Shown here: positions 15,203 through 31,049 of the stretch, one piece after another
Layout: the number at the start of each line of letters is the position of its first letter
Position numbering within the stretch: position 1 is the first letter of the stretch
Assembly: GCF_014078525.1 (NCBI RefSeq)
Contig: NZ_MU078697.1
Span: forward strand, 61,452 to 125,451
Source: Nitrosopumilus sp. b3
GTDB lineage: Archaea; Thermoproteota; Nitrososphaeria; Nitrososphaerales; Nitrosopumilaceae
Direction: 5' to 3'
DNA length: 64,000 nucleotides
Made by a program: the position numbers and the translations under genes
The notes under the pieces: model-generated
What the model was told of the DNA's origin: nothing
Database searches by the model: none
The model's input: only the letters and a program-made list of their open reading frames with translations

Positions 15203-15216
15203 GTTTTAATGGCGCG
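15203..15216. repeat. Casposon target-site duplication, distal copy (14 bp)
   Basis: GTTTTAATGGCGCG here is identical to 31,036-31,049, which is the 3' end of the tRNA-Ser gene on the other side of the element. Both copies are followed by GGGA, so the match can be read as up to 18 bp. Confidence 0.85.
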
Positions 15217-15246
15217 GGGAATATAGCCACGGCTTGAGATTTTGCA
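15217..15246. repeat. Casposon left terminal inverted repeat
   Basis: Begins GGGAATATAG and ends TTTTGCA. Against the reverse complement of 31,006-31,035 it matches 21 of 30 positions without gaps, with ATATAG and TTTTGCA perfectly kept at the same spacing. Confidence 0.7.
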
Positions 15247-15280
15247 TTATTGACGAATTTCGTTCTAGGAATAGTGGGGA

Positions 15281-15406
15281 TCAGTTCAGAGACGTTGCAG
15301 GATGATTCTTCCTATTTGGACATCGATACCCCTGCATACCATTTGGAGAGTCAGATTCTAGATGCTCCAATACAGCACCGCATTTTTTACAAATTCTAGT
15401 TTTCAT
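15281..15406 (-). CDS. Small zinc-ribbon protein, 41 aa (casposon cargo)
   Basis: MKTRICKKCGAVLEHLE with CxxC at 6-9 and a later C29 plus H35 gives a single zinc knuckle. It shares the MKTR start with the surface-protein genes upstream and begins 3 bases after the previous stop, so it is the last gene of that train. It lies just inside the left end of the element. Confidence 0.55.
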   Translation of the reverse strand: MKTRICKKCGAVLEHLESDSPNGMQGYRCPNRKNHPATSLN

Positions 15407-15409
15407 TTT

Positions 15410-16204
15410 CTATCCATCTAGTTCATAATAGCCAAACAATTTTACAGATTCAATGTTTTGACCATAATTTACAATCACTTTGTTTCCATCAAGGGAAACT
15501 CGTTTGTCATCTACATCCTCACCATTAATGTGAACCATAAATACCCCATCAATCAAATCAGTAGGAATCTCAATTTCAATATTGTCAGTAGTTCCATTTC
15601 CTACAAAATATTCCACAGTAGATTCTTTCTCACTAAATACAATTTGAAGATCATATGGAGTTTCAGAGTTTGATTGTATAATTTCCTCAAAAATTTCTAG
15701 AGTGTTTGTGCATTTCCATCCAGAAGGATCACAGAGATTTTCATCTTGGTTAAAACATGCTGTTCTGCCACTTGTACAGGGAGGCAGAGTTTCATTTATT
15801 TTTGCAACACATCTTTCAACATCTTGCTGAACTTTGCCGTATTTCATTCTGCAATCAGCAGGGGTTTTTGGTTCATCGTTTTGTCTTGAATCAAGAGAGG
15901 GTATTTTTATAAAGTCTCTTTCATCAAAGTGAGAATTATCAAATGGAGATGCGCCTTTGCCTCCTCCACCATCTAGCATACGCCTTCTTTTCTCTTCTAA
16001 TCCTTCAGAGCATTCACGACTCCTTTGATCATAATATTTGCTTTTTACTGGATCAGAGGTAGTCAGAGCATCTCGAAAATTTTCACATGGCATAGATTCA
16101 AACTCTGATTTTATTTTATTTTCATAATCAACAGTGTAAGCAAGATAAAGCATCCCAATGAAACTAGGAATTAGTATTGCAAGAATAATTAGACTAGTTT
16201 TCAT
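15410..16204 (-). CDS. Membrane-anchored surface protein, 264 aa (casposon cargo)
   Basis: MKTSLIILAILIPSFIGMLYLA is a signal anchor. The rest is extracellular in character: Cys-containing linker with GGGGKGAS, a disulphide-rich middle (CRMKYGKVQQDVERC, CTSGRTACF, LCDPSGWKC) and a beta-rich C-terminal domain (YDLQIVFSEKESTVEYFVG). No enzyme family recognised. The start codon overlaps the stop of the next upstream gene (ATGA type), which implies translational coupling. Confidence 0.65.
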   Translation of the reverse strand: MKTSLIILAILIPSFIGMLYLAYTVDYENKIKSEFESMPCENFRDALTTSDPVKSKYYDQRSRECSEGLEEKRRRMLDGGGGKGASPFDNSHFDERDFIKIPSLDSRQNDEPKTPADCRMKYGKVQQDVERCVAKINETLPPCTSGRTACFNQDENLCDPSGWKCTNTLEIFEEIIQSNSETPYDLQIVFSEKESTVEYFVGNGTTDNIEIEIPTDLIDGVFMVHINGEDVDDKRVSLDGNKVIVNYGQNIESVKLFGYYELDG

Positions 16205-17679
16205 TTTTCAGTCACAGAAACCAAAAACATATCATCATAGGAATATTCTGGGAAAAAGTTTGCAACGATTGATTTTTTTAACAACTCCAAATTTGCGCCA
16301 GATACCCTGTACTTGAATCCATCTAAAAGAAACTGAATTACATACCCTTGTGAAGGATCTTGACTAGTGTTGTTCTCATCAAATGCATTCCCTCCAACAG
16401 AAATTAGAGTGTCTCCTATCTGCCAAGTCTCAGAATCATGTTTTGCAAGATTCAGAAAATACTTTTGGTCTTGTGCAGAGACATTGGCAATGTCAAGATA
16501 CACGCTATGGTGTCCCATAGAGGAATAGTCATAGTAACGAGACTCTATTTTGTTGTGACTGGCATCAACCTCTGCAAGGCCGTATCCTGCAAATGACACA
16601 GGAATTGAAGGGTGGTTTGGATGAGATTTCTTTACAGAGTCTGCAATTGCTTTTGAGCCCTGATGAATTTCTTGTGCAGACATGGAACGTCCGTAACCGA
16701 CAACTCCGTTTTTCTCTACAGTCCACACGGGAGGTTCTATGTACAATGAACCGTTCTCATCCATTGACAAATCAAGATATGGCAATGCCATAGGAGAGGT
16801 AATCAAGACAGGATCAGTGTTTTGTATAATCAGGCCGTCAATTGCACGATATACTGTTCCCCAGCAAGGATCTTCCAGCCTTTGTCGTCCCCCATCAGGC
16901 CAGTACTTTGTTACGCAATGATCAGTGGAGATAGATACTGCACTGTATGCCCTAAATGCAGAGACGTCATTTGCATCGCCTCCCAAATGTTCTGAAAGTC
17001 TTATCAGCACAAATTTTTGAAAGACGTCCCTGTTTTCAGTGTCTTCAGGATTTGGATAGTAAAAAAATTCCATAGAATTGGGCTCCATTAATGTGATTTT
17101 GGACCAATCAATTTCCTCTTCCTTATTTTCTAGTCCACAAACATATTGTAATACATAGAATTTTTCAGCAGACATTGCAATACCCATGCCAATCTTTGAT
17201 GCATCAGGGCTGAAGATTATTCCATATGATTCTGATTCAGACACTACTTGATTCATGTAATATTTGACAAATGGCTCCAACTCGCCAGGATATCTAGTGT
17301 GCTCAGATGCAAAGGCCACACCACGAACAGTTGCAGGATTGTTGTCATTGCCTACACATCCATACCCATATGACTTTACAACATCATTTTCATCTTGACT
17401 GACAATCTCAGCATATTCAGTAGAATTGGCATTTGCAATACGCAAAGCCTCTTTGTATGCTATTTCACTTAGTTTTGCATCCATGTTTATGGCAGAGAGG
17501 TTTTTTTCAGCTCGATTTTGATTAATCCAATCAAGGAATCTGTTTTTCATTGGTTCTGCATCAATGAACTCTGTCCTAGTCAAAGGTTCACGAGAATCAG
17601 TAAGTCCAATAACTGCAAAAGAGAATCCCAAAAACAAAATGGCAACAATCACAGAAATTATGATGATTTTATTGTTCAT
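16201..17679 (-). CDS. Secreted protein with CAP-like and degenerate Rieske-like parts
   Basis: The ATG at 17,679 (MNNKIIIISVIVAILFLGF) gives a signal anchor; the upstream in-frame TTG at 17,694 is less likely. Residues about 45-185 look like a CAP/SCP domain (NRFLDWINQNRAEKNLSAINMDAKLSEIA, then YGIIFSPDASKIGMGIA and YVLQYVCG). Residues about 220-310 resemble the Rieske fold: an HC pair near STDHCVTKYW, then DPCWGTVYRAIDG, ALPYLDLSMDENGSLYIEP. The cluster histidines of real Rieske proteins are missing, so no Fe-S cluster is expected. Both calls rest on pattern only. Confidence 0.55.
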   Translation of the reverse strand: MNNKIIIISVIVAILFLGFSFAVIGLTDSREPLTRTEFIDAEPMKNRFLDWINQNRAEKNLSAINMDAKLSEIAYKEALRIANANSTEYAEIVSQDENDVVKSYGYGCVGNDNNPATVRGVAFASEHTRYPGELEPFVKYYMNQVVSESESYGIIFSPDASKIGMGIAMSAEKFYVLQYVCGLENKEEEIDWSKITLMEPNSMEFFYYPNPEDTENRDVFQKFVLIRLSEHLGGDANDVSAFRAYSAVSISTDHCVTKYWPDGGRQRLEDPCWGTVYRAIDGLIIQNTDPVLITSPMALPYLDLSMDENGSLYIEPPVWTVEKNGVVGYGRSMSAQEIHQGSKAIADSVKKSHPNHPSIPVSFAGYGLAEVDASHNKIESRYYDYSSMGHHSVYLDIANVSAQDQKYFLNLAKHDSETWQIGDTLISVGGNAFDENNTSQDPSQGYVIQFLLDGFKYRVSGANLELLKKSIVANFFPEYSYDDMFLVSVTEK

Positions 17680-17680
17680 G

Positions 17681-17749
17681 TTATGTTTTTCCAAAAATTA
17701 TTGATGTTAAAAGGATTCCAACAGTAAGAATTTTGTATCTAGTTTTCAT
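17681..17749 (-). CDS. Orphan leader peptide, 22 aa
   Basis: MKTRYKILTVGILLTSIIFGKT then a stop: it is the MKTR signal anchor seen on the neighbouring genes but with no mature part. Its start overlaps the upstream stop (ATGA) and its stop is one base before the next ATG. It may be a remnant of a deleted or frameshifted gene, or a small membrane peptide used to couple translation. Confidence 0.45.
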   Translation of the reverse strand: MKTRYKILTVGILLTSIIFGKT

Positions 17750-18156
17750 ATTTTAGAGAATCCAATTATTGAAATTATTTGAGCATTATTTACACTCATT
17801 CCAAGTTTTCCATCTTCAAGCGTATATGGTATCTCTACACCATCAGACAACACTGCAATTGAGACGATGTTTTTGTCAGGAAATAATTTTTGCAGTATAG
17901 GCAATGGGTCATCCATGTGAATAAATCCATCAATGTTTTTACTCGTTGTAATTATTATTGCTTGCATCTCATCTTCAACAGTAATAGAGTATACATCCAT
18001 GTTAGATGCTATTGCAAAGCCATTTGTGACTTGAGTGATTCTAGGATCAATATCTTGAGTGTAATGCGTGCCACCTGACATATTACTAATTATGAATGGA
18101 AGAGATATCGCCACTCCTATAATTATAGGTATTATTATCAAAACTCTAGTTTTCAT
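17746..18156 (-). CDS. Membrane-anchored small surface protein, 136 aa
   Basis: MKTRVLIIIPIIIGVAISLPF is a signal anchor. The mature part is beta-rich with no cysteines in pairs: FAIASNMDVYSITVEDEMQAIIITT and KNIVSIAVLSDGVEIPYTLEDGKLGM. It ends by overlapping the 22-aa leader frame. Not recognised. Confidence 0.6.
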   Translation of the reverse strand: MKTRVLIIIPIIIGVAISLPFIISNMSGGTHYTQDIDPRITQVTNGFAIASNMDVYSITVEDEMQAIIITTSKNIDGFIHMDDPLPILQKLFPDKNIVSIAVLSDGVEIPYTLEDGKLGMSVNNAQIISIIGFSKI

Positions 18157-18499
18157 TTCCTTCTCCACTATCAGCAGTTATTCTTACTAGCTGCATATTC
18201 TCATCCATAGTAATTTTCAGTCGTTTAGCATCTCCCTGTTTTTCTTCAACAAACTCATACTGGCAATACCTTGGCATGTTTTCCATATTTCCCAAATTGT
18301 TAAACTTTGAATCAGGATGATTATCCAAAAAATTCTTTACGACAAGAAAATCTGTTTTTCCTCTCAACCATTCTTCAGAAACATCACAATCCAAAGGAAA
18401 CAGACGTTCAAAAGACAGTGCATTCATGTACAAGACAGCACCAATAATAATTACAGAAAAAGCAGTAACAGAGAACCAAAATATTTTTCTAGTTTTCAT
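18146..18499 (-). CDS. Membrane-anchored small surface protein, 117 aa
   Basis: MKTRKIFWFSVTAFSVIIIGAVLY is a signal anchor followed by about 90 extracellular residues with two cysteines (DCDVSEEW and RYCQYEF) that could form one disulphide. An AGGTGAT stretch lies before the start. The gene overlaps the next one by 11 bases. Not recognised. Confidence 0.6.
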   Translation of the reverse strand: MKTRKIFWFSVTAFSVIIIGAVLYMNALSFERLFPLDCDVSEEWLRGKTDFLVVKNFLDNHPDSKFNNLGNMENMPRYCQYEFVEEKQGDAKRLKITMDENMQLVRITADSGEGNEN

Positions 18500-18511
18500 T
18501 TTCTTTATCAC

Positions 18512-18670
18512 CTAAATCACTGTACACTGTTTTCTTCCACTAAATAGAAACTGCTCACAAAAAAGATAGACCGATTCTTGATCATCGTATTCGATATGAT
18601 AATTCAAAGATATAGGAATTAAAATAGAAAAAATAATTATTCCAAGGATAATCAAAGTTCTAATCTTCAT
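18512..18670 (-). CDS. Very small membrane-anchored protein, 52 aa
   Basis: MKIRTLIILGIIIFSILIPISL is a signal anchor; only 30 residues follow, with two cysteines. The start lies inside the 3' end of the upstream gene (18,660-19,883). It may be a reduced copy of its neighbours. Confidence 0.55.
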   Translation of the reverse strand: MKIRTLIILGIIIFSILIPISLNYHIEYDDQESVYLFCEQFLFSGRKQCTVI

Positions 18671-19883
18671 TTTCTGGTTCCGGTTCAGGTATGGGTTCGG
18701 GTTCAGGCGCACCCATCACATAATCAAGGGTCGGAGTGTATGGAACATGTGGTACATTCAAGTCCATTGGTTCTATCATCTTTAATAATTCACCAAGACC
18801 AATATCCATTGTAGCCCTGACATAGATTCTATCATCTCTGTGAATAATTATTGTTGAATAATGCGGTCTGTTTGGCTCATCAATTTCATATCCTTCTGCA
18901 AATGTTCCACGAAGATCATAGAATATTTTTCCTTCTTCTCGTTCAGGGTTTAGTTTGTAATGTGTATTGTTGAAATTTATTCCCATTGGGTGGTGAGACA
19001 CTTCCAGTCCATTGGAATAGTAAAGAGTTGCCTTTCTTCTATCATTAGAAATTTTGATTTTTTCAAGTTCTGTTCCTTCTGGAAGATATGGTGTGCCAAG
19101 TGTGTAATTCAGATAAGATTCTGCGTCATTGATAGAATAGACGTATGTGTTCTTGTCAGCATAGTTTCCTTCAGGAATGGGGTTAGGTTCGGGTTCAGGT
19201 TCAGATGCCAATTCATTATTTGTTACTCCCGGAACCCAGCCAACACCAGGATATAGTTTGTATCCTGCATCTAGCATTAGGTCTCTTTCTGCTATTGATG
19301 AGATGATCAGTTTTCTTTCGACTAGTTTTAGCAAAGTTTGTTCTTTTACACATGCAGGAGAGCCATTATTTTTTGTAACCAGAGTCAATGATTCTCTGCA
19401 TTGTATTTCATCAGCTAGAACACCAGACTTGAATTGCTTTAGTGGAGATAAAATTTCCTGCGGAATTGGATAAACTATTGGATCTAAAGATGCACCAACA
19501 TAGTTTTGTCGTACACCAAAGTTCCAATCCATAGATTGAATTCCGTTTTCCAATACCATATAGTAATTTCCAACCTCCCAATGTTCGGGAATAGTGAAAT
19601 TAAAGCTAAAATCCCCAGATTCACTTGTATCTGGATTTAGAGTTAAAACCAGTTTACTTGAATCCTCATAGTTTTTGAAAATGTTAGTAGTGAAATCATC
19701 TACATGTTGCTTAAAACTTCCATTAACAAACATAGTTTCCCCTGGAGAAATAATATTTTGCGAGATATCCATTATTTGTCCAGGAACTTCAATTATTCCA
19801 CCACCATTAAACGCATCAGAGTAAGGAATTCCTACAGATCCAATAATTCCAATTAAGATGATTATCAAAAATCTAGTTTTCAT
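18660..19883 (-). CDS. Secreted surface protein with Pro/Glu linkers, 407 aa
   Basis: The ATG at 19,883 gives MKTRFLIIILIGIIGSVGIPYSDAF, a signal peptide. Then come an Ig-like beta domain (ISPGETMFVNGSFKQH ... YYMVLENG), a short module (SPLKQFKSGVLADEIQC ... SPACVKEQTLLKLVER) that recurs in secreted thaumarchaeal proteins, a Pro-Glu linker, a beta domain and a PEPEPIPEPEPENED tail. The linkers suggest cell-wall extension. Function unknown. Confidence 0.65.
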   Translation of the reverse strand: MKTRFLIIILIGIIGSVGIPYSDAFNGGGIIEVPGQIMDISQNIISPGETMFVNGSFKQHVDDFTTNIFKNYEDSSKLVLTLNPDTSESGDFSFNFTIPEHWEVGNYYMVLENGIQSMDWNFGVRQNYVGASLDPIVYPIPQEILSPLKQFKSGVLADEIQCRESLTLVTKNNGSPACVKEQTLLKLVERKLIISSIAERDLMLDAGYKLYPGVGWVPGVTNNELASEPEPEPNPIPEGNYADKNTYVYSINDAESYLNYTLGTPYLPEGTELEKIKISNDRRKATLYYSNGLEVSHHPMGINFNNTHYKLNPEREEGKIFYDLRGTFAEGYEIDEPNRPHYSTIIIHRDDRIYVRATMDIGLGELLKMIEPMDLNVPHVPYTPTLDYVMGAPEPEPIPEPEPENED

Positions 19884-20293
19884 TGACATTCAAGTGCTAA
19901 ACGCACCCCTCTATCTTCAAGAACTGATTCAACTTCATCTAGTTGTTCCAAGGATTCTATCAATCTCATACCACTGCTCTCAGGTGACCACAGACCTTCA
20001 ATGCTAATGCGTAATTTTTCATTTTGCATGTCAGTTATCAAGATATACCTGTCTGACCAATCAAATCGCCAATCTAATTTTTTAATCTCATTTAGAACGG
20101 TTTTTGCAAAAACTTCCCGGTCTATTTTGTGAGTTGTTTGGACTAGAATTTGTGTATTACAATAGACATCATTTTCAGGTAGGTCATAGGTTGGATTCAT
20201 CTTTATTGGAAAATCAATCAGGATCGTTCCTGTAATTATTAGCGAAAATCCCGCCACAATTATGCCAACTATTATCACTGCTCTAGTTTTCAT
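19880..20293 (-). CDS. Membrane-anchored small surface protein, 137 aa
   Basis: MKTRAVIIVGIIVAGFSLIITGTIL is a signal anchor. The remainder (VYCNTQILVQTTHKIDREVFAKTVLNEIK, WSDRYILITDM) is alternating strand-helix. Its stop overlaps the next ATG (ATGA). Not recognised. Confidence 0.6.
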   Translation of the reverse strand: MKTRAVIIVGIIVAGFSLIITGTILIDFPIKMNPTYDLPENDVYCNTQILVQTTHKIDREVFAKTVLNEIKKLDWRFDWSDRYILITDMQNEKLRISIEGLWSPESSGMRLIESLEQLDEVESVLEDRGVRLALECQ

Positions 20294-20295
20294 AT

Positions 20296-20529
20296 TTACT
20301 CCACTGAAATGTACTCTATTTTTTCACCGCAAAAGGGGCAGTAATCAATGGGTGTAAGAGTGTCTTTTTCTACAATGCAGAACTTTCCAATTTTCCCACT
20401 CCAAGATTTTACAACTGAGACATATTTCTTTAATTTCTCACAGCAAAAATCCAGTTCATCTTCACTTTTGAATTCAGTAAAAGAGACAAATTCAAAAGCC
20501 TGAATATCTTTGCGTACATATACTTCCAT
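20296..20529 (-). CDS. Small protein with C-terminal CPFC knuckle, 77 aa
   Basis: About 50 residues of mixed strand/helix with a CC pair (residues 29-30) precede a C-terminal zinc half-knuckle (DYCPFCGEKIEYI). Lacks a signal sequence, so it is cytoplasmic. It is the first gene of the surface-protein train; its stop is 2 bases before the next start. Confidence 0.55.
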   Translation of the reverse strand: MEVYVRKDIQAFEFVSFTEFKSEDELDFCCEKLKKYVSVVKSWSGKIGKFCIVEKDTLTPIDYCPFCGEKIEYISVE

Positions 20530-20768: not shown

Positions 20769-21041
20769 TCAAGTTTCAATGTTATAATATCGATAAATAG
20801 GAACTTTGTTTTCCACACCAAGTCTTTCTCTTTTGATTAATTGTTTAGAATAACATTTTCTCAAACATGTATCAATTTCTTTATGATCAATTGTTGTTTT
20901 CAGATCCTTTTCAATATCAGAAGAACCTCTTTTAATTATAGATAGAATTTGGCGTTGTAATTCAAATAATTCCTCTCTAGTGTATGGGCGATCTAAAAAA
21001 TATCTATCATCATAGCCTAGAATCGGAGGTTCTGAAACCAT
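20769..21041 (-). CDS. Small cytoplasmic protein, possibly winged helix, 90 aa
   Basis: RPYTREELFELQRQILSIIKRGSSDIEKDLKT followed by KEIDTCLRKCYSKQLIKRERLG and a final strand pair VPIYRYYNIE look like helix-turn-helix plus wing. No close family recognised. A 29-codon frame starts at TTG one base out of phase near its stop. Confidence 0.5.
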   Translation of the reverse strand: MVSEPPILGYDDRYFLDRPYTREELFELQRQILSIIKRGSSDIEKDLKTTIDHKEIDTCLRKCYSKQLIKRERLGVENKVPIYRYYNIET

Positions 21042-21254: not shown

Positions 21255-21626
21255 ATGGGACTAAGTGCTCTAGTGATAGACGATTCTAAATTCATGAGAG
21301 AAAGCATAAGGGAGACTCTAGCTTACCTGAAGATTGGCTCAATTATTGAGGCCAAAAACGGCATAGAGGGAGTCAGGGCATTTATGAAGCACAAACCAGC
21401 CTTGGTGACAATAGACTATGAGATGCCAGGATTAAACGGCATAGAGACTGCAATGAAGATTCGAGAGATTGACAAGAATGTCATGATGATAATTGTCACA
21501 TCCATCAAGTCAAACATGATAGCAGTAAAGAGCGGAAAGATTCCAAATCTAGGATACATTACAAAGCCAATTGATCCTATCATGGTCAAAGAGACCATTG
21601 CAAAGTTGCAAAAGGCAGGAAACTGA
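21255..21626 (+). CDS. CheY-like response regulator (casposon cargo)
   Basis: A single receiver domain of 123 residues: acidic pair DD at 9-10, phospho-acceptor D54 in VTIDYEMPGLNG, Thr in IIVTS and Lys in YITKPID. The best resemblance is to CheY-type proteins that act by protein contact. It is followed 6 bases later by a second receiver. A TATTATTAA box lies about 25 bases upstream. Confidence 0.85.
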   Translation: MGLSALVIDDSKFMRESIRETLAYLKIGSIIEAKNGIEGVRAFMKHKPALVTIDYEMPGLNGIETAMKIREIDKNVMMIIVTSIKSNMIAVKSGKIPNLGYITKPIDPIMVKETIAKLQKAGN

Positions 21627-21632
21627 TGTAAA

Positions 21633-22064
21633 ATGAGCATCAGGGCAAACAATCCTCTACGATTCTGCAAGATTCTCATTGCAGATGATTCTGCATTTTT
21701 TAGATCATCAGTAAAGAAGATTCTCACCGAGGCAAACATTGGAAGCCGTTTTTATGAGGCAAATGACGGACAGGAGGCAGTATCAAAGTACGTACAGTTC
21801 AAACCAGACGTTACAATTATGGACATTATAATGCCAAACATTGATGGTGTAAAAGCTACAATGGCAATAAAACATCATGATCCAAATGCCAAGATTATTG
21901 TCATCTCTGCCAAGGAAAACAAAGAAACGGTAGAAGATGTGGTAAACAAGGGTGGTGCAAAGGATTATGTCCTCAAGCCTTGTGATTCTAGTGCAATAGT
22001 TATGGCAGTATCAAAGCAGGTCGTAGTTAGCAGACTAAAAAAGTCAGCTCCAAAATTAAAATGA
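21633..22064 (+). CDS. Second CheY-like response regulator (casposon cargo)
   Basis: Receiver domain with DD at 18-19, phospho-acceptor D64 in TIMDIIMPNIDG, SAK motif and Lys in VLKPCD. The 13-residue N-terminal extension is basic. Together with the preceding gene it forms a two-receiver operon without a kinase, so it must rely on host kinases. Confidence 0.85.
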   Translation: MSIRANNPLRFCKILIADDSAFFRSSVKKILTEANIGSRFYEANDGQEAVSKYVQFKPDVTIMDIIMPNIDGVKATMAIKHHDPNAKIIVISAKENKETVEDVVNKGGAKDYVLKPCDSSAIVMAVSKQVVVSRLKKSAPKLK

Positions 22065-22099: not shown

Positions 22100-22375
22100 T
22101 CAGTTTTTCAATAATTTTATAAAATTATCAATATCAGACTCCATTAAATTTGCAGATAGTGCTTTTTGGATTGATTGGAATATTTCATCGTATTGGGAAT
22201 GATACAATTGGAGTAAAATACCCTTCAAGATTTCAGGATGATCAATGCAGTCATCTAATGTCAAGAGGTATTTTGATGATAATATAGCTTGTACCTTTTC
22301 TAATTCAGACAGACCGATCTTTAGCATTGCTTGCTCTACTGCAAGTCTTACTGCATGTTTATTGACATTTGACAC
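22100..22375 (-). CDS. Small all-helical protein, 91 aa
   Basis: NVNKHAVRLAVEQAMLKIGLSELEKVQAIL and later helices (HPEILKGILLQLY, YDEIFQSIQKAL) indicate a helical bundle. It sits convergent with the CheY pair. Its position next to two receivers makes a role as their partner possible, but that is inference. No family named. Confidence 0.55.
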   Translation of the reverse strand: MSNVNKHAVRLAVEQAMLKIGLSELEKVQAILSSKYLLTLDDCIDHPEILKGILLQLYHSQYDEIFQSIQKALSANLMESDIDNFIKLLKN

Positions 22376-22587: not shown

Positions 22588-22776
22588 CTATAATTGACTC
22601 AGATATTCAGTATGGCTCTTGGAATTCTCAAATGCCTTTTGCAGTCTTGATTCTAGTTCTGCCTTTTCCTGTACGTCTACAATCCATTGCTCTAGCTGTG
22701 CCTTTATGATCAATTCCTCCCACGATAGGTTACCATCTATGATGTTTTCAGAATCATATCTCAAATTAGTCGCCAT
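22588..22776 (-). CDS. Small helical protein, 62 aa
   Basis: SWEELIIKAQLEQWIVDVQEKAELESRLQKAFENS is one long amphipathic helix. ATG at 22,776. It faces the ribbon-helix-helix gene at 22,832 across a 55-base promoter gap. Not recognised. Confidence 0.5.
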   Translation of the reverse strand: MATNLRYDSENIIDGNLSWEELIIKAQLEQWIVDVQEKAELESRLQKAFENSKSHTEYLSQL

Positions 22777-24551: not shown

Positions 24552-25763
24552 TTATTCTAATTTTTCTAATATTTTGTCATAGATTTTCATTTTATCTTTT
24601 GACTGGACATTCTTTTTCATATACCATAACGTAGATTTGTTAATACCTAACTTCTTTCCCTCCTCAGGACTCATTGACAAAATCTTTTGTCTTAACTCTA
24701 AATTATCATCACGATTAATCTTAATTGGTGGAATCTTAATCTCCAAAGTCTTTTTCCTGTCTCCAACAAACTGTGCAAGCTGTGAGATGTTATTGTTTAG
24801 AATATTCTGATATGCAAAATATTTTTTGCCATAGGATACCTTGAGATTGAAATTGTACTTTATCTTATCAACTAGTAACTTTGCAGTTGATTGTTTTAAT
24901 CTAATGTGATAGTTTTCAGTTAGAATAAAATCTGATTTCTTTAGCTTGTTCTCTTCTAGTAATTGAATGACAGACAAATCAATTAACCAACGGAACAACT
25001 CTTGACAATCATAAACCAAAGGAGTTCTGCTAAGTAACGTCTCATGCAAGAATCCAATCTGTGTGTCAAGACCGACAGAGTTGAGAGATTTTTTGATTTC
25101 AGCTGCTAGGATAGAATAACCATAGTTTAGCAGTGCATTGATTTCGTCTGCTGCATGGTCTGCTCTTTTGTGATCAATGCTGGAGCGAGTCTCAAATGAG
25201 AATTGCGGTGCCAGTTTGCCAAATACATCTCTGATGTACTCAAAGTAGATTTTAGCGATTCTTGCCTCATGGCCCATTATCTCAGGGATTTTGTGCGTGT
25301 TTTTGGCTGATTTGGTACGGAAAATCTCAAATTCGGCCTCAAATCTCTTCTTGATTTCATTTTTGTCTATAGGATAAAATTTTGATAATTCCAATAATAG
25401 ATTCAGTGAAGAATCAATCTTTGATTTGACAATCTTTTCTGCAATAGAATATCGTATTATTCCATCAAGGTGTTTCTTGTATTGGAATAATCTCAACTTT
25501 CCTGAAATTGTTTGGTCTGGCAGTGTTGTTGCCAACAGATTTCCATCCCAGTTTAACAAAGTTAGATGAATATTATGTTTCATCAGCCACCTCATTGACT
25601 CAAAGGAAATGTTTCCAGTATGACCGTCAATTATGATACTGTCATGCTCTATCTTGTGTGGTGCAAATTCCAGTCTTTTGTTTTGCAGTTTGTTTGTAAC
25701 TACTAGTTTTCTCTTGTCTACGTTAATTGATGTGCCAAAGCCTGAAATTAGTAAGGGATTCAT
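24552..25763 (-). CDS. cas1: Cas1-family integrase (casposase)
   Basis: Cas1 endonuclease-integrase of 403 residues. The ATG at 25,763 is preceded by GGAGGAG. The N-terminal beta domain (residues 1-85, LISGFGTSINVDKRKLVVTN, IIDGHTGNISFESMRWLMKH) and helical C-terminal domain are both present. Metal ligands appear conserved: E166 in GHEARIAKIY, H240 in GFLH, D252 and E255 in VYDCQELFR. The last 50 residues add a helix-turn-helix (GKKLGINKSTLWYMKKN), a feature of casposon Cas1 proteins that bind the element ends. No cas2, other cas gene or CRISPR array is in the window. It joins and cuts DNA ends during transposition in characterised relatives. The start overlaps the upstream surface-protein stop. 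Confidence 0.93.
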   Translation of the reverse strand: MNPLLISGFGTSINVDKRKLVVTNKLQNKRLEFAPHKIEHDSIIIDGHTGNISFESMRWLMKHNIHLTLLNWDGNLLATTLPDQTISGKLRLFQYKKHLDGIIRYSIAEKIVKSKIDSSLNLLLELSKFYPIDKNEIKKRFEAEFEIFRTKSAKNTHKIPEIMGHEARIAKIYFEYIRDVFGKLAPQFSFETRSSIDHKRADHAADEINALLNYGYSILAAEIKKSLNSVGLDTQIGFLHETLLSRTPLVYDCQELFRWLIDLSVIQLLEENKLKKSDFILTENYHIRLKQSTAKLLVDKIKYNFNLKVSYGKKYFAYQNILNNNISQLAQFVGDRKKTLEIKIPPIKINRDDNLELRQKILSMSPEEGKKLGINKSTLWYMKKNVQSKDKMKIYDKILEKLE

Positions 25764-27187
25764 TTTCTCCTCCAATAAATGATCAAACCTATACCAGAGC
25801 CAGTTCCTGCAACCAGTGCAATAACAATCAAAGTCAAATCAAAGTGAGAGTCATTAAATATTCCAGTTCCAGAACCGAATCCCATACTTTCTTCAGCAAA
25901 GTATACTTTTTCACTTGCCATCTTCATCTCTTCACTATCATCATAAGCATCATGTTCAGGTCCAAATTGAAATCTGTATTCTGCTGGTGCATATTTTGAA
26001 TCACATAGTTTTCTGTCTTTATACCAAGTGCCATCAAGCTTGTCACATTCTTCTTTGTCATTTACAATTGGAATTCCTGTTTCAATGTCATAATTTCCAA
26101 TTCTTTGGCATTGATCATTTAGTATCATGCCACGTCCTCCCAGACAGATTTTTTCGCCATCTTCATTAACAATTTCATAAGAACTTGTAACTTCGGGTTT
26201 TGGTTCTGGAGGAGGAGCACCAAATGCATCCCGGTCTAAATATTCACAGTCAATGTTGTCAATAAAGTGAGTAGCATTCCACCAACGAAGTTCAGGTTCT
26301 ATGCAAGCCTGTCCAGATTTTTTACATTCACAATTATCCAAGACATCTTGTAGCTTGCTGTCTGGTTCTTCCATATTCTTTTTGCATTTTCCAAAGTCAT
26401 GTTTAGGATTTGGGTCACATGTTGGAAGATCCTTGTTCATCTCTTCAAAAGTAGTGCAGACGCCATTAGACAATCCATATCCTTCCTCACAGCGTTCCAC
26501 ATATACAGGATTTTCAGAATAATAGTTTCCATCCTCAGGCCCAGGCTCCCATATGTAACCAGCAGGAGGAGAAGTTAGTTTAGTGGTGCATGAATCAGTA
26601 TTGCCGTTTTCAACGTATACTTTGTAGGTTTTTCCAATGGTATAATCAACACTTACTGAAGAACTTGTAACAGCATCATCGTCATGAAATATTTTTCCAG
26701 TGTTATCTAAGACATGTTTTGGAGTATCGACTTTTCCTTTAATCACATCATGAATAAAGAAGGTAACTCTCTGCGGTCCATCATAATTGTCAAGGCGTGT
26801 AACGGTTCCTGTAAAGACAAGTTCAGATGATTTTAACTTTGCATCATAGTTTATTTCTTCAGTACAAAGCGCATAGGCATATTTGATTTCCATGCCACTT
26901 GCAATATCAAAATAGACAGGTTCTATGAAACTAATGTAAAGTGATTCTAAAAATCCAGGTGTGCCATGTTCTGTAGGATGCCATGTGCATGTTAGTAAAT
27001 CAAATGAATGTGTATGATTGTACAATCCAATTGAAGGAACGACTTGATGTTCTTTAGGAGGAACACAGTTTTGTACCCAATCAGATTTTTTTATTTCTTG
27101 GTCTTGGTATGACAAATAATATTGATCAGATGCCAGCAAAGATGCAAGTATCACAACAATTATTCCAACAATTATCAAGATTTTCAT
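25760..27187 (-). CDS. Cys-rich surface protein, TIMP/NTR-like domain, 475 aa
   Basis: Signal anchor MKILIIVGIIVVILASLLA and a second span near the C-terminus (LIVIALVAGTGSGIGLIIYW) place both ends at the membrane. Residues about 105-210 show a TIMP/NTR-like OB-fold pattern: CTEEINYDAKLKSSELVFTGTVTRL, VTFFIHDVIKGK, YTIGKTYKVYVENG. After that there are numerous cysteines (PTCDPNPKHDFGKC, NCECKKSGQAC). Probably extracellular and disulphide-rich. Domain call is by pattern. Confidence 0.6.
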   Translation of the reverse strand: MKILIIVGIIVVILASLLASDQYYLSYQDQEIKKSDWVQNCVPPKEHQVVPSIGLYNHTHSFDLLTCTWHPTEHGTPGFLESLYISFIEPVYFDIASGMEIKYAYALCTEEINYDAKLKSSELVFTGTVTRLDNYDGPQRVTFFIHDVIKGKVDTPKHVLDNTGKIFHDDDAVTSSSVSVDYTIGKTYKVYVENGNTDSCTTKLTSPPAGYIWEPGPEDGNYYSENPVYVERCEEGYGLSNGVCTTFEEMNKDLPTCDPNPKHDFGKCKKNMEEPDSKLQDVLDNCECKKSGQACIEPELRWWNATHFIDNIDCEYLDRDAFGAPPPEPKPEVTSSYEIVNEDGEKICLGGRGMILNDQCQRIGNYDIETGIPIVNDKEECDKLDGTWYKDRKLCDSKYAPAEYRFQFGPEHDAYDDSEEMKMASEKVYFAEESMGFGSGTGIFNDSHFDLTLIVIALVAGTGSGIGLIIYWRRK

Positions 27188-28140
27188 TTTCTCTTCTCCA
27201 TTAACTCTGACAATTCCTCAGGAATGCTTCCATATTGTTTCTCATATTGCTCAATTTGTTCATGTAAGCTTTGCTCATCATAGTTATAGTGAATAATCTG
27301 TCCAACAAGGTTTCCAAGTTCCCCTAGTTTGTTCATCTCTGAAATAAATTTCCAATGCGACTCATTATCTATGGATTCTATCATGGATTCTTGTCGTAAT
27401 TGATGGCGTTGATCACGCAATGTCAATGAGTATTCATAAAGAGATTGTCGCCATGAATCAAGTTCTATGTTACAGAAATGTCCATTAGAATAGCTAGAGA
27501 GGACATCATCAGTGTTGAATGAGGCAAACCTATAGTCGGTGTTTTTGTCAAAACAATTCAAATGGTATGGCTGCTTGTCAGTTATCTCATTAGTACAAGT
27601 ATCAAGATGAAAGTATGTTGATGCAAGCTGATTTTTTTCATTTGTTGCAATCAAACCATAGTGAATGTTTGATATGTCATTTCGCTCATCAAATATGTCC
27701 AGTTCCAGGGTGTGTGAGGCGTATTTTTTGGAAAATATCTGAAAATTCTTTGTCTGGGAGATTTTTTGCAGTTGCAGAGGAATATTTTGCTCTATGGCGC
27801 ATATTGAGGATGGAACATAGTCAAATTTTTCTGCTCTTTGCTGCACAGTCATGAAAGGATATTGGCCTTCAAGCAGTGTGACTTTGGAGATCTTGATTCC
27901 AAGCAAATCTAGTGAGAGTTCCTTGAATTTTTCTCCCATCAGTATTCTTGATGCGTTGAATTGCTGCATGTTACCGTCTAGTTTGTATTTTTTTGACTTT
28001 TCATTGATGGAAATTATTTCGTTTGTTTGTTTTTTAAATGACAGGGATTTTGGGATTTCATTTGGGTTTTGATATACAAGAAACAATGTTGCAGATACCA
28101 AGACTGCCATGACAGATATGATTTTCAGTTCAGTCTTCAT
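27184..28140 (-). CDS. Membrane-anchored surface protein, 318 aa
   Basis: MKTELKIISVMAVLVSATLFLVYQ is a signal anchor. The remainder has no recognised domain; four cysteines (SICAIEQ, DTCTNE, NCFDK, HFCNIE) could form two disulphides. The stop overlaps the start of the 475-aa gene (ATGA), and the start overlaps the stop of the winged-helix gene, so all are one operon. Confidence 0.6.
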   Translation of the reverse strand: MKTELKIISVMAVLVSATLFLVYQNPNEIPKSLSFKKQTNEIISINEKSKKYKLDGNMQQFNASRILMGEKFKELSLDLLGIKISKVTLLEGQYPFMTVQQRAEKFDYVPSSICAIEQNIPLQLQKISQTKNFQIFSKKYASHTLELDIFDERNDISNIHYGLIATNEKNQLASTYFHLDTCTNEITDKQPYHLNCFDKNTDYRFASFNTDDVLSSYSNGHFCNIELDSWRQSLYEYSLTLRDQRHQLRQESMIESIDNESHWKFISEMNKLGELGNLVGQIIHYNYDEQSLHEQIEQYEKQYGSIPEELSELMEKRK

Positions 28141-28841
28141 TTTTTCATCCTCAGCTTTGCTTTTGTAATGTTTCGTAATCGTTTGAGTTCTTCAGATTCT
28201 TCTTTTGTTACTTTTCCATCCTCAAATATTGCCAAGATGTCTTTTTCTTTTTGTGACATGATATCAAGATAATCCAAGGATTGTTCTTTGATTGACTTTA
28301 CCAAATCCTTGTATTCTAGAATGAATCCCAAAATTATTTTGCCGTCTTTAGCATCATCAAGTTTGATGTTTTTGTTTTTAATATCCTCAATAATGTTACG
28401 ATACAAAGTTTGATGTAGATTGTTTGCAGTCTCTTTTGTAATTGGATTGTTCTTTGAGAGTTTCTTGTCATAGACCAGATCATCTTGGATTCCCCACGGC
28501 AAATCATAATAGTACATTGAACCTCTAATGTTGTCATAATCCTCATGATACAACCCGCCATTTACCAGAATCTTGTTAATCAGCATCCCGATAATTCCAA
28601 AGGAGAGAAGAGAGTTTTTTCCTTTCTTAGTTATTGCATATGCCTTTTTGTGTTGGTATATTACAAGTTCAATCTTTTTTTCATCCTCCAGTTCTTTTCT
28701 GAGTCGATTGGCACTGCTTGGGCCCTTGCCGTACTGCCGTTCAAGTTCAGAAAATGGCAGTGGTTCAGCCTCCAAAAGCGACAAAAATCTGTTTTTTCGT
28801 AGCTCTTTTGTGACTGATTCTTCAATATCTTGAGTATACAA
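28137..28841 (-). CDS. Winged-helix DNA-binding protein, likely operon repressor
   Basis: Residues about 10-75 look like a winged helix (RFLSLLEAEPLPFSELERQYGKGPSSANRLRKELEDEKKIEL, wing AYAITKKGKNSL). The rest is helical with no output domain recognised. A TTG start at 28,841 lies directly at the edge of a GGTAGT palindrome cluster and about 23 bases from TTAATAA, so the transcript is probably leaderless and self-repressed. First gene of the 28,841-24,552 operon that ends with cas1. Confidence 0.7.
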   Translation of the reverse strand: MYTQDIEESVTKELRKNRFLSLLEAEPLPFSELERQYGKGPSSANRLRKELEDEKKIELVIYQHKKAYAITKKGKNSLLSFGIIGMLINKILVNGGLYHEDYDNIRGSMYYYDLPWGIQDDLVYDKKLSKNNPITKETANNLHQTLYRNIIEDIKNKNIKLDDAKDGKIILGFILEYKDLVKSIKEQSLDYLDIMSQKEKDILAIFEDGKVTKEESEELKRLRNITKAKLRMKK

Positions 28842-28866
28842 TGGTAGTTTACTACCATTTGGTAGT
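28841..28866. promoter_or_regulatory. Overlapping palindromic operators between divergent genes
   Basis: ATGGTAGT-TT-ACTACCAT (28,841-28,858) is a perfect inverted repeat, and ACTACC-ATTT-GGTAGT (28,851-28,866) is a second one sharing its right half. They lie between the TATA boxes and starts of the winged-helix gene (minus) and the HTH gene (plus), the typical place for autorepression. Confidence 0.65.
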
Positions 28867-28897
28867 TATTAAGTATTATTCAGCTATCTTGTATTAT

Positions 28898-29383
28898 GTG
28901 AAGCAACAAATCCACAAAAAGCCCTGGAACAAATTAACTCCAAGACAGAAGAGCACAAGAAAAAAGGCACTAGCAGTAATCACACAATCAAAAAAATCAA
29001 AAAGACCAGTATCAATCATTGCAAGAGAAAATGAAATCTCATTGAGTACAGTTCAAAAACATACCAATGCTTTCAAGAAGGTAAAGGGCAGGTGGATTCC
29101 AAAAAAGTGGGACAAGGTTTCACGTTCTGTTACAATTGTAGAGAACGGCAAATTTCGTTCTGTACAGGTTTCTGACTCCAGACACTCTACTACCATAGGA
29201 CGATACCACAATGCAGTAAGGCACTATCTTAACACAGGGGACTCATCCAAGCTAAAGAAATTCAAGAAAAAGAAAATTAGAGATTCAAACGGTAAACTGC
29301 ATTCCTTTGAGACTAGATTAAAGATAATCGAAGAGATTCACGAATCCATTGAGGAGATTGAATTCTTTGAGGTGTATGATTGA
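28898..29383 (+). CDS. HTH-domain protein of the casposon, 161 aa
   Basis: From GTG 28,898 the protein reads VKQQIHKKPWNKLTPRQKS; a TTATTAAG box is about 27 bases upstream. Residues about 22-65 form a helix-turn-helix (RKKALAVITQSKKSKRPVSIIARENEISLSTVQKHTNAF) followed by a basic domain and acidic end. HTH proteins of this kind accompany Cas1 in casposons. Its stop shares bases with the next start (TGATG). Confidence 0.7.
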   Translation: MKQQIHKKPWNKLTPRQKSTRKKALAVITQSKKSKRPVSIIARENEISLSTVQKHTNAFKKVKGRWIPKKWDKVSRSVTIVENGKFRSVQVSDSRHSTTIGRYHNAVRHYLNTGDSSKLKKFKKKKIRDSNGKLHSFETRLKIIEEIHESIEEIEFFEVYD

Positions 29384-29841
29384 TGATGTTAGAGAATTAC
29401 GATCCACTAATTATATTCAATGACAAAATCTCTACCGTACATGATAGAATTCAACATGAGACAAACCAAACTAGAATTTTTCTAAATGCATTATTCAATC
29501 AGACACTACAAGAGTCAAAGACTAGAAAAAAGTATTGTGAAATCTGTTTGGTCAGACATGTTTCATTTGAGGGACACCATGTAGCTGGAAGAAAGCACGA
29601 CCATAGACAAATCACTGCATGCATTCCATGCCATAACATCCTGACTGGAACACAGAAACTTTGGGATTCTAGATGGTGGGATGAGACAGAATCAGAAGTC
29701 TTGAGATTATCCTTTTTGTATCATGGTGTTTATGATGTTTTAAAATTAATTTCTGCAAAAAGACAAGATTCTCTTTACTCTCAGATTGCAGATTCTATCA
29801 TTCCAATGGTCTCATATCTGCAAAATGGGGCTCAAAATTGA
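29383..29841 (+). CDS. HNH endonuclease
   Basis: Residues about 48-95 hold the HNH motif with its zinc cysteines: KYCEICLVRH, then FEGHHVAGRKHDHRQITACIPCHNILTGTQKLWD. The His-His pair, the central Asn-like region and the final CxxCHN are in order. Casposons regularly carry an HNH nuclease next to cas1 or polB; a role in element maintenance is inferred. The stop overlaps the next TTG. Confidence 0.85.
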   Translation: MMLENYDPLIIFNDKISTVHDRIQHETNQTRIFLNALFNQTLQESKTRKKYCEICLVRHVSFEGHHVAGRKHDHRQITACIPCHNILTGTQKLWDSRWWDETESEVLRLSFLYHGVYDVLKLISAKRQDSLYSQIADSIIPMVSYLQNGAQN

Positions 29842-30710
29842 GCCTAGATTCGGTGTTTTTGAGGTGTTTTGCAGATTCTCACGGTACACCATATGATGAC
29901 ACTTTCAAAATAGAACCAAAACCAAACGACTCGATTCATCTTGTGTTAGGATATGATAGAAAATCAGATTATGGAACATGCATCATTTGGATTAATCAGA
30001 AAATCTCAAAGAGTCTCTTTTTCTGTACTGATAACACTAAACAATCTGCAATAAAGAAACTGGATTCTAGATTTCCCATTTATTCTAGAAGAGAGTTTGT
30101 TGAGAAGATATTTTTTCCATATGTTCAGAAAGCAAGGGCAAAGTGCATTGGATTTGAATTGCCATACATCATATCAAGGCTTGCTACTCATACCACAGAA
30201 TCAAGACGTCATCCAAACGGTTTCTCTTTTACATTGTCAGACAAGGCAAAAATTCCACACATAGTAATCAAAAACATTGATAGTAAATCACAGTTCATCG
30301 AGTTTAACAAGACATTTAGAAAAAAGATCAAAGACAATATTCCATATTACAGAGGATGTTTTGTTGATTGCAAAACTCTGGGATTTGTGTTAACAAACAA
30401 TTCATATGATTTAGAATCTATCATTTCTGACTTTGATGTTCCCATAGTTTTGGATGAATCTCCAATCAATTATGCCTTGGCAGTCTATTCTTTGTACAGA
30501 CAATTGATGAACAGATTCAAAATGTTTTGTCTAGACAAGCTAGAAAACAAGTTGTTCTCACCTGCAACTATAGGAAAATCATATCTAGAAAAGATTGGCA
30601 TCATTCCATTTCTAAAACAGGAATATCATAGATATACCAAACATAAATTAGAACATGGTAATTTATTGATTTTATTTACTATCTTTTTTTTAATAAAATA
30701 TAAAAAATAA
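29838..30710 (+). pseudogene. Truncated family-B DNA polymerase (3'-5' exonuclease part only)
   Basis: Blocks that match the exonuclease half of element-encoded PolB-like proteins are seen: IGFELPYIISRLA, NGFSFTLSD, the Asp motif CFVDCKTLGFVLTNNSYDLESIISDFDV, and SPATIGKSYLEKIGI. Casposon polymerases continue for several hundred residues into palm and thumb; here the frame turns into a low-complexity basic end (LLILFTIFFLIKYKK) and stops. Only about 320 bases remain before the element end, so the polymerase domain has been deleted. Starts at TTG overlapping the HNH stop. Confidence 0.65.
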
Positions 30711-30715
30711 AAGAT

Positions 30716-30880
30716 ATGCCAGATGAAAGTTGCAGAAAATGTGGCAAACCACTATACACAAACACAAAATGTAGTGATTGTAGTACAATATTTCAAGAAA
30801 TATGCATGAATTGTGGGAATAAACCGCTTCCAAGGTATCATTTTTGCATTAAAATAAATAAAAATAAAATTATAATTTGA
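30716..30880 (+). CDS. Small zinc-ribbon protein, 54 aa
   Basis: Three CxxC pairs (C6xxC9, C19xxC22, C30xxC33) plus a late His-Phe-Cys. It starts 5 bases after the polymerase fragment stop; the C-terminal end IKINKNKIII is of low complexity and may be read-through beyond an original stop. Unknown role. Confidence 0.5.
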   Translation: MPDESCRKCGKPLYTNTKCSDCSTIFQEICMNCGNKPLPRYHFCIKINKNKIII

Positions 30881-31005
30881 AAATTCACTTTTTTATCTAT
30901 CTTTTATTTTTTAAAATATCTCTTTTTTTAAAATAAGATAGATCTAGCTTAAGATATTTTTTTTTAAAAAAATATAGACTCCCCTATAGTCTCAGATGGA
31001 ATCAG

Positions 31006-31035
31006 TGCAAAACCCCATGCCTCAACTATATACAC
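31006..31035. repeat. Casposon right terminal inverted repeat
   Basis: Reverse complement begins GTGTATATAG and ends TTTTGCA, matching the left end at 15,217-15,246 at 21 of 30 positions. The preceding 30,881-31,005 is A/T-rich with a small AGACT/AGTCT hairpin and no gene. Confidence 0.7.
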
Positions 31036-31049
31036 GTTTTAATGGCGCG
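31036..31049. repeat. Casposon target-site duplication, tRNA copy (14 bp)
   Basis: GTTTTAATGGCGCG covers the last bases of tRNA-Ser with its CCA and the first bases downstream. Identical to 15,203-15,216. Confidence 0.85.

What the first reader, a model, noticed from the sequence alone, without database searches (positions are those of the whole stretch)
15203..31049. A casposon with a 14-bp duplication of tRNA-Ser and matching terminal repeats
A lone Cas1 with HTH tail, HNH nuclease, HTH protein and PolB fragment lie inside a 15.8-kb segment whose edges carry imperfect inverted repeats (21 of 30 bases) and a 14-bp copy of the tRNA-Ser 3' end. The duplication length and tRNA target agree with what is known for casposons. 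This gives exact boundaries and a very large cargo.
Basis: partly seen in the sequence, partly recalled or inferred. Interest (0 to 1): 0.95.

Follow-up and report, generated by a model that had tools for sequence, protein, structure and literature searches.

The report
Casposon lodged in a tRNA-serine gene
A 15.8-kb stretch of DNA carrying a lone Cas1 gene (a relative of the enzyme that writes CRISPR memories) sits exactly at the 3' end of a serine-tRNA gene in a Nitrosopumilus-type archaeon, while close relatives have the same site empty; Cas1 likely put it there by reading the tRNA's T-arm sequence, and its own DNA polymerase gene is cut short, so it is predicted to be unable to copy itself unaided.

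Summary
Window 15217-31035 (15,819 bp) is flanked by 14-bp copies of GTTTTAATGGCGCG (15203-15216, 31036-31049); the right copy overlaps the last 7 nt of tRNA-Ser(GCU). 22 of 29 loci fetched from relatives show the empty site, including the nearest genome (flanks 93-95% identical). The lone Cas1 has the C-terminal HTH of family-2 casposases and groups with the solved Methanosarcina mazei casposase (83/82), apart from six compact, family-1-type Cas1 of the genus. (2) Of 24 host-facing casposon ends collected by their inverted repeat alone, 20 have TTC[A/G]AAT[C/T] at exactly -16..-9 from the duplication, in tRNA-Ser, tRNA-Glu and non-tRNA sites; this is the register measured in vitro for the A. 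boonei casposase. Related elements stand in tandem (at least five junctions in one genome). Casposons are a known kind; this is a new variant. Mobility is untested.

The parts
15203..15216 (.). distal 14-bp target-site duplication (GTTTTAATGGCGCG)
   Evidence: single copy in empty sites
15217..15247 (+). left terminal inverted repeat, GGGAATATAG...GATTTTGCAT
   Evidence: same outer and inner motifs in relatives
15410..16204 (-). cargo: 264-aa protein with MKTS-type signal sequence; a 51-aa module shared (67%) with the G185 casposon
16201..17694 (-). cargo: CAP-domain (PF00188) predicted secreted protein
   Evidence: E 5.5e-6
17746..18168 (-). cargo: small protein with MKTR signal sequence
18146..18511 (-). 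cargo: small protein with MKTR signal sequence
18512..18712 (-). cargo: small protein with MKIR signal sequence
18660..19889 (-). cargo: 409-aa MKTR-signal protein with WING-49 domain (NF058652)
19880..20293 (-). cargo: 137-aa protein with MKTR signal sequence
20296..20529 (-). cargo: 77-aa protein, 92% identical to one inside a sister element in G039
20769..21041 (-). cargo: 90-aa protein of unknown kind
21255..21626 (+). cargo: CheY-like response regulator
   Evidence: PF00072 E 3.9e-19
21633..22064 (+). cargo: second CheY-like response regulator
   Evidence: PF00072 E 2e-25
22100..22375 (-). cargo: 91-aa protein of unknown kind
22588..22776 (-). cargo: 62-aa protein, homologue (66% over 47 aa) in the G039 element
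23155..23370 (-). small ribbon-helix-helix-like protein (label by eye, no Pfam hit over cut-off), homologues in sister casposons
23398..24336 (+). cargo: coiled-coil protein with a hydrophobic stretch (by eye; no Pfam hit over cut-off)
24552..25775 (-). cas1: casposase with C-terminal helix-turn-helix; E170, H244, D256 and E259 invariant in the alignment
25760..27187 (-). cargo: 475-aa protein of unknown kind
27184..28140 (-). cargo: 318-aa protein of unknown kind
28137..28841 (-). winged-helix-like protein found next to cas1 in relatives
28841..29383 (+). HTH protein of the casposon core (homologous to genes beside PolB in relatives)
29380..29841 (+). HNH-type nuclease of the casposon core (motif by eye)
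29838..30710 (+). truncated polB: residues 1 to about 261 of an 863-aa family-2-type PolB; all polymerase motifs missing
30615..31035 (.). right end shared with cas1-less elements of G161 (73% over 266 nt) and G010 (81% over 273 nt), in place of the rest of polB
30716..30880 (+). 54-aa double-zinc-ribbon-like protein (below Pfam cut-off), conserved at the right end of two cas1-less sister elements
31005..31035 (-). right terminal inverted repeat, GTGTATATAG...GTTTTGCAC read from the end inward
31036..31049 (.). tRNA-proximal target-site duplication; overlaps 7 nt of tRNA-Ser
31043..31129 (-). tRNA-Ser(GCU), kept intact by the insertion
31058..31065 (-). leader motif TTCAAATC (T-arm) at -16..-9 from the duplication

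Best explanation
A 15,819-bp element with imperfect terminal inverted repeats and 14-bp target duplications sits at the 3' end of tRNA-Ser(GCU), and it is most likely a polymerase-less derivative of a family-2 casposon that its own Cas1 (casposase) likely inserted. Shown by sequence: exact ends, duplication, intact tRNA, empty site in relatives, open Cas1 frame with conserved catalytic-type residues and HTH tail, loss of the polymerase part of PolB, and a right end that matches cas1-less sister elements. Inferred mechanism: Cas1 is predicted to hold the two TIR ends, recognise the T-arm sequence TTCAAATC 8 bp upstream of the site, join the 3' ends to the two strands 14 bp apart at the tRNA 3' end, and leave gaps that host repair fills, giving the duplication; the tRNA stays whole because the copied 7 nt restore it. 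Inferred: the element lost the end of polB by recombination with a cas1-less sister element; since then it would depend on host replication, or on excision and re-integration by Cas1, instead of copying itself. The cargo (predicted secreted or membrane proteins with a common MKTR-type signal, two CheY proteins) is carried along; what it does for the host is not known.
For: Ends and duplication. Empty site in 22 of 29 relatives' loci. Cas1 full length 254 bits, E 2.2e-74 to the M. mazei casposase against at most 91 bits for any other Cas1 in the PDB; a tree of 55 Cas1 places it with 6opm (83/82) and away from six compact Cas1 (100/100), one of which adjoins EF-2 and three of whose four tested neighbours are DNA_pol_B_2 polymerases. 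No Cas2 and one Cas1 in the genome. No integrase domain in the 23 element proteins scanned with Pfam. PolB of the window aligns to residues 1-273 only; no other copy in the genome. TTC[AG]AAT[CT] at -16..-9 in 20 of 24 host-facing ends found by TIR (19 TTCAAAT, one TTCGAAT), the 4 without it being far ends of elements; background 2.8e-4 per position. Whole-family pattern: 138 places in 62 of 250 genomes against 3 places for the reversed pattern. A. boonei casposase needs TCAAATC at -15..-9 in vitro (passages of PMC6614799).
Against: In 2014 all casposons were said to carry PolB (PMC4046053, passages), and this copy has lost it, so present mobility is doubtful. The TIRs match at only 21 of 31 positions. 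The fork with M. mazei has moderate support and one reference sequence, taken from an alignment printout; the tree program flagged 6opm and the CRISPR rows as long branches of unsure place, and A. boonei Cas1 was not in the tree. The T-arm motif is present in nearly every tRNA (recalled), so the tRNA cases alone do not show recognition; only the nine non-tRNA cases do, and for that class no empty copy was seen. The 24 ends were collected with a list of inner TIR motifs drawn up by eye, from loci brought in by Cas1 searches and by two patterns holding the tRNA-Ser end, and some are related by descent, so they are not 24 independent draws. One motif-bearing end (G039) faces the motif with its left TIR, unlike the tRNA-Ser elements.
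Confidence: 0.86

Rival explanations
1. An integrated element put in by a tyrosine recombinase at a tRNA attachment site; Cas1 is just cargo.
For: 57% of the thaumarchaeal integrated elements in one survey lie in tRNA genes (PMC6563490 section 7), most such elements carrying XerC/XerD-type integrases (passage); direct repeats of tRNA 3' ends are typical of them.
Against: None of the 23 element proteins scanned with Pfam has an integrase domain. The element has terminal inverted repeats shared with other Cas1-bearing elements, and the duplication has the same length and register in elements whose ends are unambiguous (AATAGAAACGTGCT in G054; CGCGCCTTTCTTTT in G258).
Confidence: 0.05
2. A dead relic: the element is decaying after loss of polB and can no longer move in any way.
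For: PolB lacks all polymerase motifs, no other copy of it exists in the genome.
Against: Cas1, HTH and HNH frames are open and conserved; the two duplications are identical; M. mazei casposons were reported to excise and re-integrate, including an engineered mini-casposon (passages of PMC10359463). Elements without cas1 stand at tRNA-Ser(GCT) in G010 (3.65 kb) and at a tRNA-Ser(ACT) in G170 (1.03 kb), so ends alone seem enough for mobility in trans.
Confidence: 0.35
3. A domesticated Cas1 used by the cell (for example for CRISPR adaptation) that happens to lie in an island.
For: Pfam and NCBIfam call it a CRISPR Cas1.
Against: No Cas2, no second Cas1; HTH tail, TIRs, duplication and casposon core genes; tree position. 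A CRISPR array was not searched for genome-wide.
Confidence: 0.02

Closest known systems
NitNCS1-C1, family-2 casposon of Ca. Nitrosotalea okcheonensis (PMC6563490 section 11, read)
   Same: Thaumarchaeal host, Cas1 + HNH + HTH core, tRNA gene as target, damaged polB.
   Different: tRNA-Pro instead of tRNA-Ser; there polB is split in two, here its polymerase part is gone and the right end is another. It was the only family-2 casposon of Thaumarchaeota in that paper. Its sequence was not compared here.
AciBoo-C1 of Aciduliprofundum boonei (PMC6614799, passages)
   Same: 14-15-bp duplication at a tRNA 3' end; TCAAATC at -15..-9.
   Different: tRNA-Pro; CC at the start of the duplication; polymerase gene present (recalled); euryarchaeal host. 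Its Cas1 was not compared here.
M. mazei casposons (6opm; PMC6977970 and PMC10359463, passages)
   Same: Full-length Cas1 similarity with HTH tail; 14-bp duplication overlapping 4 nt of tRNA-Leu.
   Different: tRNA-Leu; CGCA at the start of the duplication where this one has CGCG; polB present.
   Same: Same tRNA-Ser site, same TIR motifs, Cas1 82%, HNH 68%, HTH 61%.
   Different: Complete 863-aa PolB; a second, cas1-less 15.5-kb element stands between it and the tRNA.
Family-1 casposons of Nitrosopumilus (NitAR1-C1 and kin)
   Same: Host genus; lone Cas1.
   Different: Compact Cas1 without HTH, protein-primed PolB, EF-2 as commonest target (PMC4046053, PMC6563490, passages); two such Cas1 of the genus are 27% identical to the window's.

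Membership tests
Casposon (superfamily) | Cas1 without CRISPR partners as the only candidate integrase | tested here: met
   one Cas1, no Cas2; no integrase domain in 23 element proteins
Casposon (superfamily) | Terminal inverted repeats | tested here: met
   21 of 31; 2 of 20,000 random pairs; motifs shared with relatives
Casposon (superfamily) | Target-site duplication, median 15 bp, with single-copy empty site | tested here: met
   14 bp (18 counting chance identity); empty in 22 of 29
Casposon (superfamily) | Family-B DNA polymerase gene (self-synthesis) | tested here: not met
   only residues 1 to about 261 of 863 remain; no other copy in the genome. Hence filed as a derivative, not as a complete casposon
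Family 2 casposon | C-terminal HTH on Cas1 | tested here: met
   absent in the two family-1-type rows of the same alignment
Family 2 casposon | Cas1 groups with family-2 casposases | tested here: met
   with M. mazei 6opm at 83/82, single, long-branched reference; that M. mazei is family 2 is from passages of PMC6977970 and PMC6563490
Family 2 casposon | HNH nuclease and HTH protein genes | tested here: met
   homologues at 12 (HNH) and 13 (HTH) of 13 related Cas1 loci compared; HNH motif by eye, no Pfam hit over cut-off
Family 2 casposon | PolB ending in the same HTH as Cas1 | tested here: not met
   present in the relatives' PolB (by eye), lost here with the C-terminus
Family 2 casposon | Insertion overlapping 4-7 nt of a tRNA 3' end (reported for five euryarchaeal casposons) | tested here: met
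   7 nt of tRNA-Ser
Family 1 casposon | Compact Cas1, protein-primed PolB, EF-2 target | tested here: not met
Any active casposon | Excision and integration by its Cas1 | not testable with these tools
   needs enzyme or culture

The most novel reading that the evidence does not exclude
Casposons of this archaeal family build CRISPR-like arrays out of whole transposons: a T-arm-like leader, 14-bp repeats, and inserts of 1 to 20 kb added at the leader by Cas1. Cas1 is a swappable targeting module (both elements found with a Cas1 from one clade and a PolB from another sit at the target type of the Cas1 clade), cas1-less and polymerase-less inserts such as the one in this window are moved in trans, and in a sister group the leader itself has left the tRNA and travels with the elements (all 19 exact copies of one non-tRNA leader pattern found in 95 genomes have an element-like end behind them, 17 by a strict test). 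That would be a living intermediate between a transposon target and a CRISPR locus.
Probability: 0.25. Interest if true: 0.9.

Novelty: new variant of a known kind. Interest (0 to 1): 0.62.

Why it matters
It supplies exact ends, an empty site, an intact relative, polymerase-less and cas1-less versions, and many insertions of related casposons. That makes two open questions testable by experiment: which DNA a casposase reads in nature (T-arm-like leader plus first bases of the duplication), and whether casposon ends and Cas1 suffice for movement without PolB. Both bear on how Cas1 and leader-repeat arrays of CRISPR arose.

Tried and rejected
Family 1 was my first label (note), because that is the family reported for Nitrosopumilus; rejected after the HTH tail, the tree and the EF-2 and DNA_pol_B_2 neighbours of compact Cas1 in the same genus. 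That the non-tRNA targets are one protein-coding gene: rejected, no common frame runs through the sites and the upstream sequences differ. Free copies of the non-tRNA leader: of 19 exact pattern matches all are followed by a GGGG-, GGGA- or GGAG-type start; a score scan of about 1.25 Mb of held, partly overlapping loci (trained on 31 sites, so biased to them) counted 44 occupied and 3 not followed by a TIR by its strict test: two of these (L177, L182) score high and look like variant element ends by eye, the third is weak. Fold of the PolB: model weak (mean pLDDT 60); best PDB match phi29 polymerase, E 5.8e-4, TM 0.18, not relied on. Pfam, NCBIfam and PHROGs find no polymerase family over cut-off in the intact 863-aa relative (one weak DNA polymerase II hit, 19.1 bits against a cut-off of 570); the polymerase call rests on motifs DFASMFP, NSTCYG and CDTDS (recalled as PolB motifs A, B, C) and weak profile hits to DNA polymerase alpha (E 7e-4). 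A duplication at the EF-2 end within L129 was sought and not found. Viral contigs: 8 stretches matched a pattern, none encodes a relative of the Cas1. A search for the MKTR signal elsewhere in the genome with a 39-aa piece only found itself, so how common it is outside the element is not settled. Krupovic et al. 2016 on casposon mobility is not held, so prior report of cas1-less casposons cannot be excluded; the searches made were made, in the open-licence library only.

Full report
What is there. The window lies in a Nitrosopumilus-type genome (a same-genus genome, G122, has a contig of the same length as one whose protein is named Nitrosopumilus sp.). At 15203-15216 and 31036-31049 stands GTTTTAATGGCGCG. 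The right copy covers the last 7 nt of tRNA-Ser(GCU), 31043-31129 on the minus strand. Between the copies lie 15,819 bp whose ends are inverted repeats, GGGAATATAG against GTGTATATAG and so on, 21 of 31 positions, a value that 2 of 20,000 random pairs from the element reach. The direct repeat can be stretched to 18 bp because the element begins GGGA like the tRNA; the 14-bp length is fixed by relatives whose ends leave no doubt (AATAGAAACGTGCT in G054; CGCGCCTTTCTTTT in G258), and with 14 bp the two inverted repeats align without offset.

Empty site. A search of 100 genomes, its own included, with the tRNA and the gene behind it found matches in 99, many of them short; 29 loci were fetched besides the window's own. 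In 22 of 29 the left flank and the tRNA are joined with one copy of the shared stretch, letter for letter GTTTTAATGGCGCG in 15 and one base different in 7; in two of the 22 (L004, L024) only about 200 bp of the left flank match. The nearest genome, G051 (flanks 94.5% and 92.9% identical), has the predicted empty site. So the element most likely arrived after the split from G051. The remaining seven: G010 carries a 3.65-kb element with the same end motifs at the same base; G044 has another left flank; in G043 a contig ends there; for G003, G013, G032 and G045 the fetched piece did not hold the whole site (G013's was later seen intact).

Casposase and family. Cas1 (24552-25775, minus) matches PF01867 and, over its whole length including the HTH tail, the solved M. 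mazei casposase 6opm with 254 bits; the next Cas1 in the PDB has 91. The genome has no other Cas1 and no Cas2; a CRISPR array was not searched for. In a tree of 55 Cas1 (44 of the 120 listed homologues, six compact Cas1 of the same genus, four PDB stretches and the window) it falls in a clade of its homologues next to 6opm (83/82) and away from the compact ones (100/100); the program warns that 6opm and the CRISPR rows are long branches. The two compact ones aligned lack the HTH, three of four tested neighbours are DNA_pol_B_2 polymerases, and one Cas1 sits right behind EF-2: they fit family 1 as defined in PMC4046053 (passages). The window element has the family-2 set: HTH on Cas1, HNH and HTH proteins, tRNA 3' target. 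In PMC6563490 (sections 7 and 11 read, other passages seen) one thaumarchaeal family-2 casposon is given, in tRNA-Pro of Nitrosotalea. PMC12097351 (passages) places a Nitrosarchaeum Cas1 in family 1; whether it is of the present clade was not tested.

Polymerase lost. In JAOTVS010000009.1 (L032) the same element type has an 863-aa PolB with motifs at 296, 472 and 548 and a C-terminal HTH like that of Cas1. The window's frame matches residues 1-273 (70%) and stops after 290 aa. From 30615 on, its DNA matches the right ends of cas1-less elements in G161 (73% over 266 nt) and G010 (81% over 273 nt). Two other genomes share this end, so an assembly slip is unlikely. No other copy of this PolB exists in the genome. 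The retained part also lacks the D-x-E motif (recalled as exonuclease motif I) that 6 of the 11 other PolBs aligned show near residue 44; its two nearest relatives lack it too. I therefore call it a chimeric, polymerase-less derivative and do not file it as a complete self-synthesising casposon.

Relatives at the same tRNA. A left-end and a right-end pattern holding the tRNA-Ser 3' end found 6 and 5 genomes among 250 of the family. G170 has a 1.03-kb insert with both ends, in tandem with another element; G161 a 7.5-kb one, both beside a tRNA-Ser with anticodon ACT. G172 and G258 (contig length equal to that of P0049, Ca. Nitrosotenuis cloacae) have casposons of another end type at the very same base of tRNA-Ser(GCT).

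How it picks its site. I collected ends in held loci by the inverted repeat alone (outer motif plus a list of inner motifs drawn up by eye): 44 distinct, 20 of them facing another element, 24 facing host DNA. Nineteen of the 24 have TTCAAAT[CT] at -16..-9 from the 14-bp duplication; one (G010) has TTCGAATC there; the other four are the far ends of elements. Of the 20, eight are tRNA-Ser, three tRNA-Glu, and nine lie where ARAGORN finds no tRNA (for G058 only 60 nt upstream were at hand). The motif at any position has a frequency of 2.8e-4. Part of the tRNA-Ser loci came in through patterns holding the tRNA-Ser end, and some ends are related by descent. A pattern of motif, 22 bases and TIR start gave 138 places in 62 of 250 genomes, against 3 places for the reversed pattern. 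This second count presupposes the motif; the first does not. The A. boonei casposase needs TCAAATC at -15..-9 and the first two bases of the duplication in vitro (PMC6614799, passages), the M. mazei enzyme CGCA and some tRNA sequence (PMC6977970, passages). The window site has TCAAATC at -15..-9 and CGCG. That the HTH tail reads the motif is my inference.

Modules. Among 14 loci compared (PolB in 13), Cas1 and the PolB-HNH-HTH block disagree in two: G172 (Cas1 75-86% to the window clade, PolB 31-37% to it, but 57-64% to the block of G054, G258, G038 and G036) and G038 (Cas1 80-82% to G022, G009 and G058, PolB 31-33% to them, 56-59% to the G054 block). G172 sits at tRNA-Ser like the window. For G038 a leader of the AGCACAAC type, with a variant end, lies on the same contig at the fitting place and orientation; that it is the end of this very element is inferred. 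Two cases are few, but they suggest that Cas1 sets the target.

Arrays. The single-contig genome G022 has a leader at 1,415,200 and TIR-duplication-TIR junctions at 1,436,804, 1,444,955, 1,457,581, 1,478,063 and 1,497,934, the inner copies inverted relative to the leader copy, so the block may have flipped once. Tandem insertion of two casposons is in print (PMC6563490, passage); rows of this length I did not see in the passages I read, and the library is partial (searches).

Verdict. Ordinary in kind, new in form: a family-2-type casposon at tRNA-Ser with a missing polymerase, part of a large population of related ends. That it came in by Cas1 is well supported by comparison; that it can still move is open.

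Noticed in passing
L079/L080/L091/L188-L192 (G022:C1:1415200-1497950): A row of casposons at one non-tRNA leader with at least five tandem junctions, inserts of about 21.6, 8.1, 12.6, 20.5 and 19.9 kb between identical 14-bp repeats; inner repeats inverted relative to the leader copy. Right end not found up to 1,548,900.
   Followed up: partly
L169-L187 (19 places in 9 of 95 genus genomes): A non-tRNA leader-plus-duplication pattern resembling tRNA-Glu's 3' end was found, as exact matches, only with an element-like end behind it (17 of 19 by a strict test, the other two by eye), with unlike DNA in front: it may travel with the elements.
   Followed up: partly
window 15410-20293 (minus strand): Six of seven cargo genes in this stretch begin with nearly the same signal sequence (MKTR/MKTS/MKIR plus a hydrophobic run) but have unlike mature parts; the scan found no other such gene start in the 64-kb window; also seen in the G185 and G039 elements and once outside an element in G039.
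   Followed up: partly
L101 and L099 (G170, G161): A second tRNA-Ser gene with anticodon ACT, unusual for archaea (recalled), stands beside casposon ends near the normal GCT copy; it may be a copy made by casposon traffic.
   Followed up: no
window 31150-31160 equivalent in G013, G028, G031, G040: Matches break and restart with an 11-base overlap just upstream of the same tRNA-Ser, with 0.3 to 5 kb between: a different recurrent insertion point.
   Followed up: no
L102 (G039:C52): A sister element with a 92% identical cargo gene lies at another site, its left end facing a TTCAAATT motif, and runs off the contig.
   Followed up: no
L127 11476 and L128 14284: Casposon-type ends with the same leader rule lie in loci fetched for compact family-1-type Cas1 genes, so both families may share target rules.
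   Followed up: no
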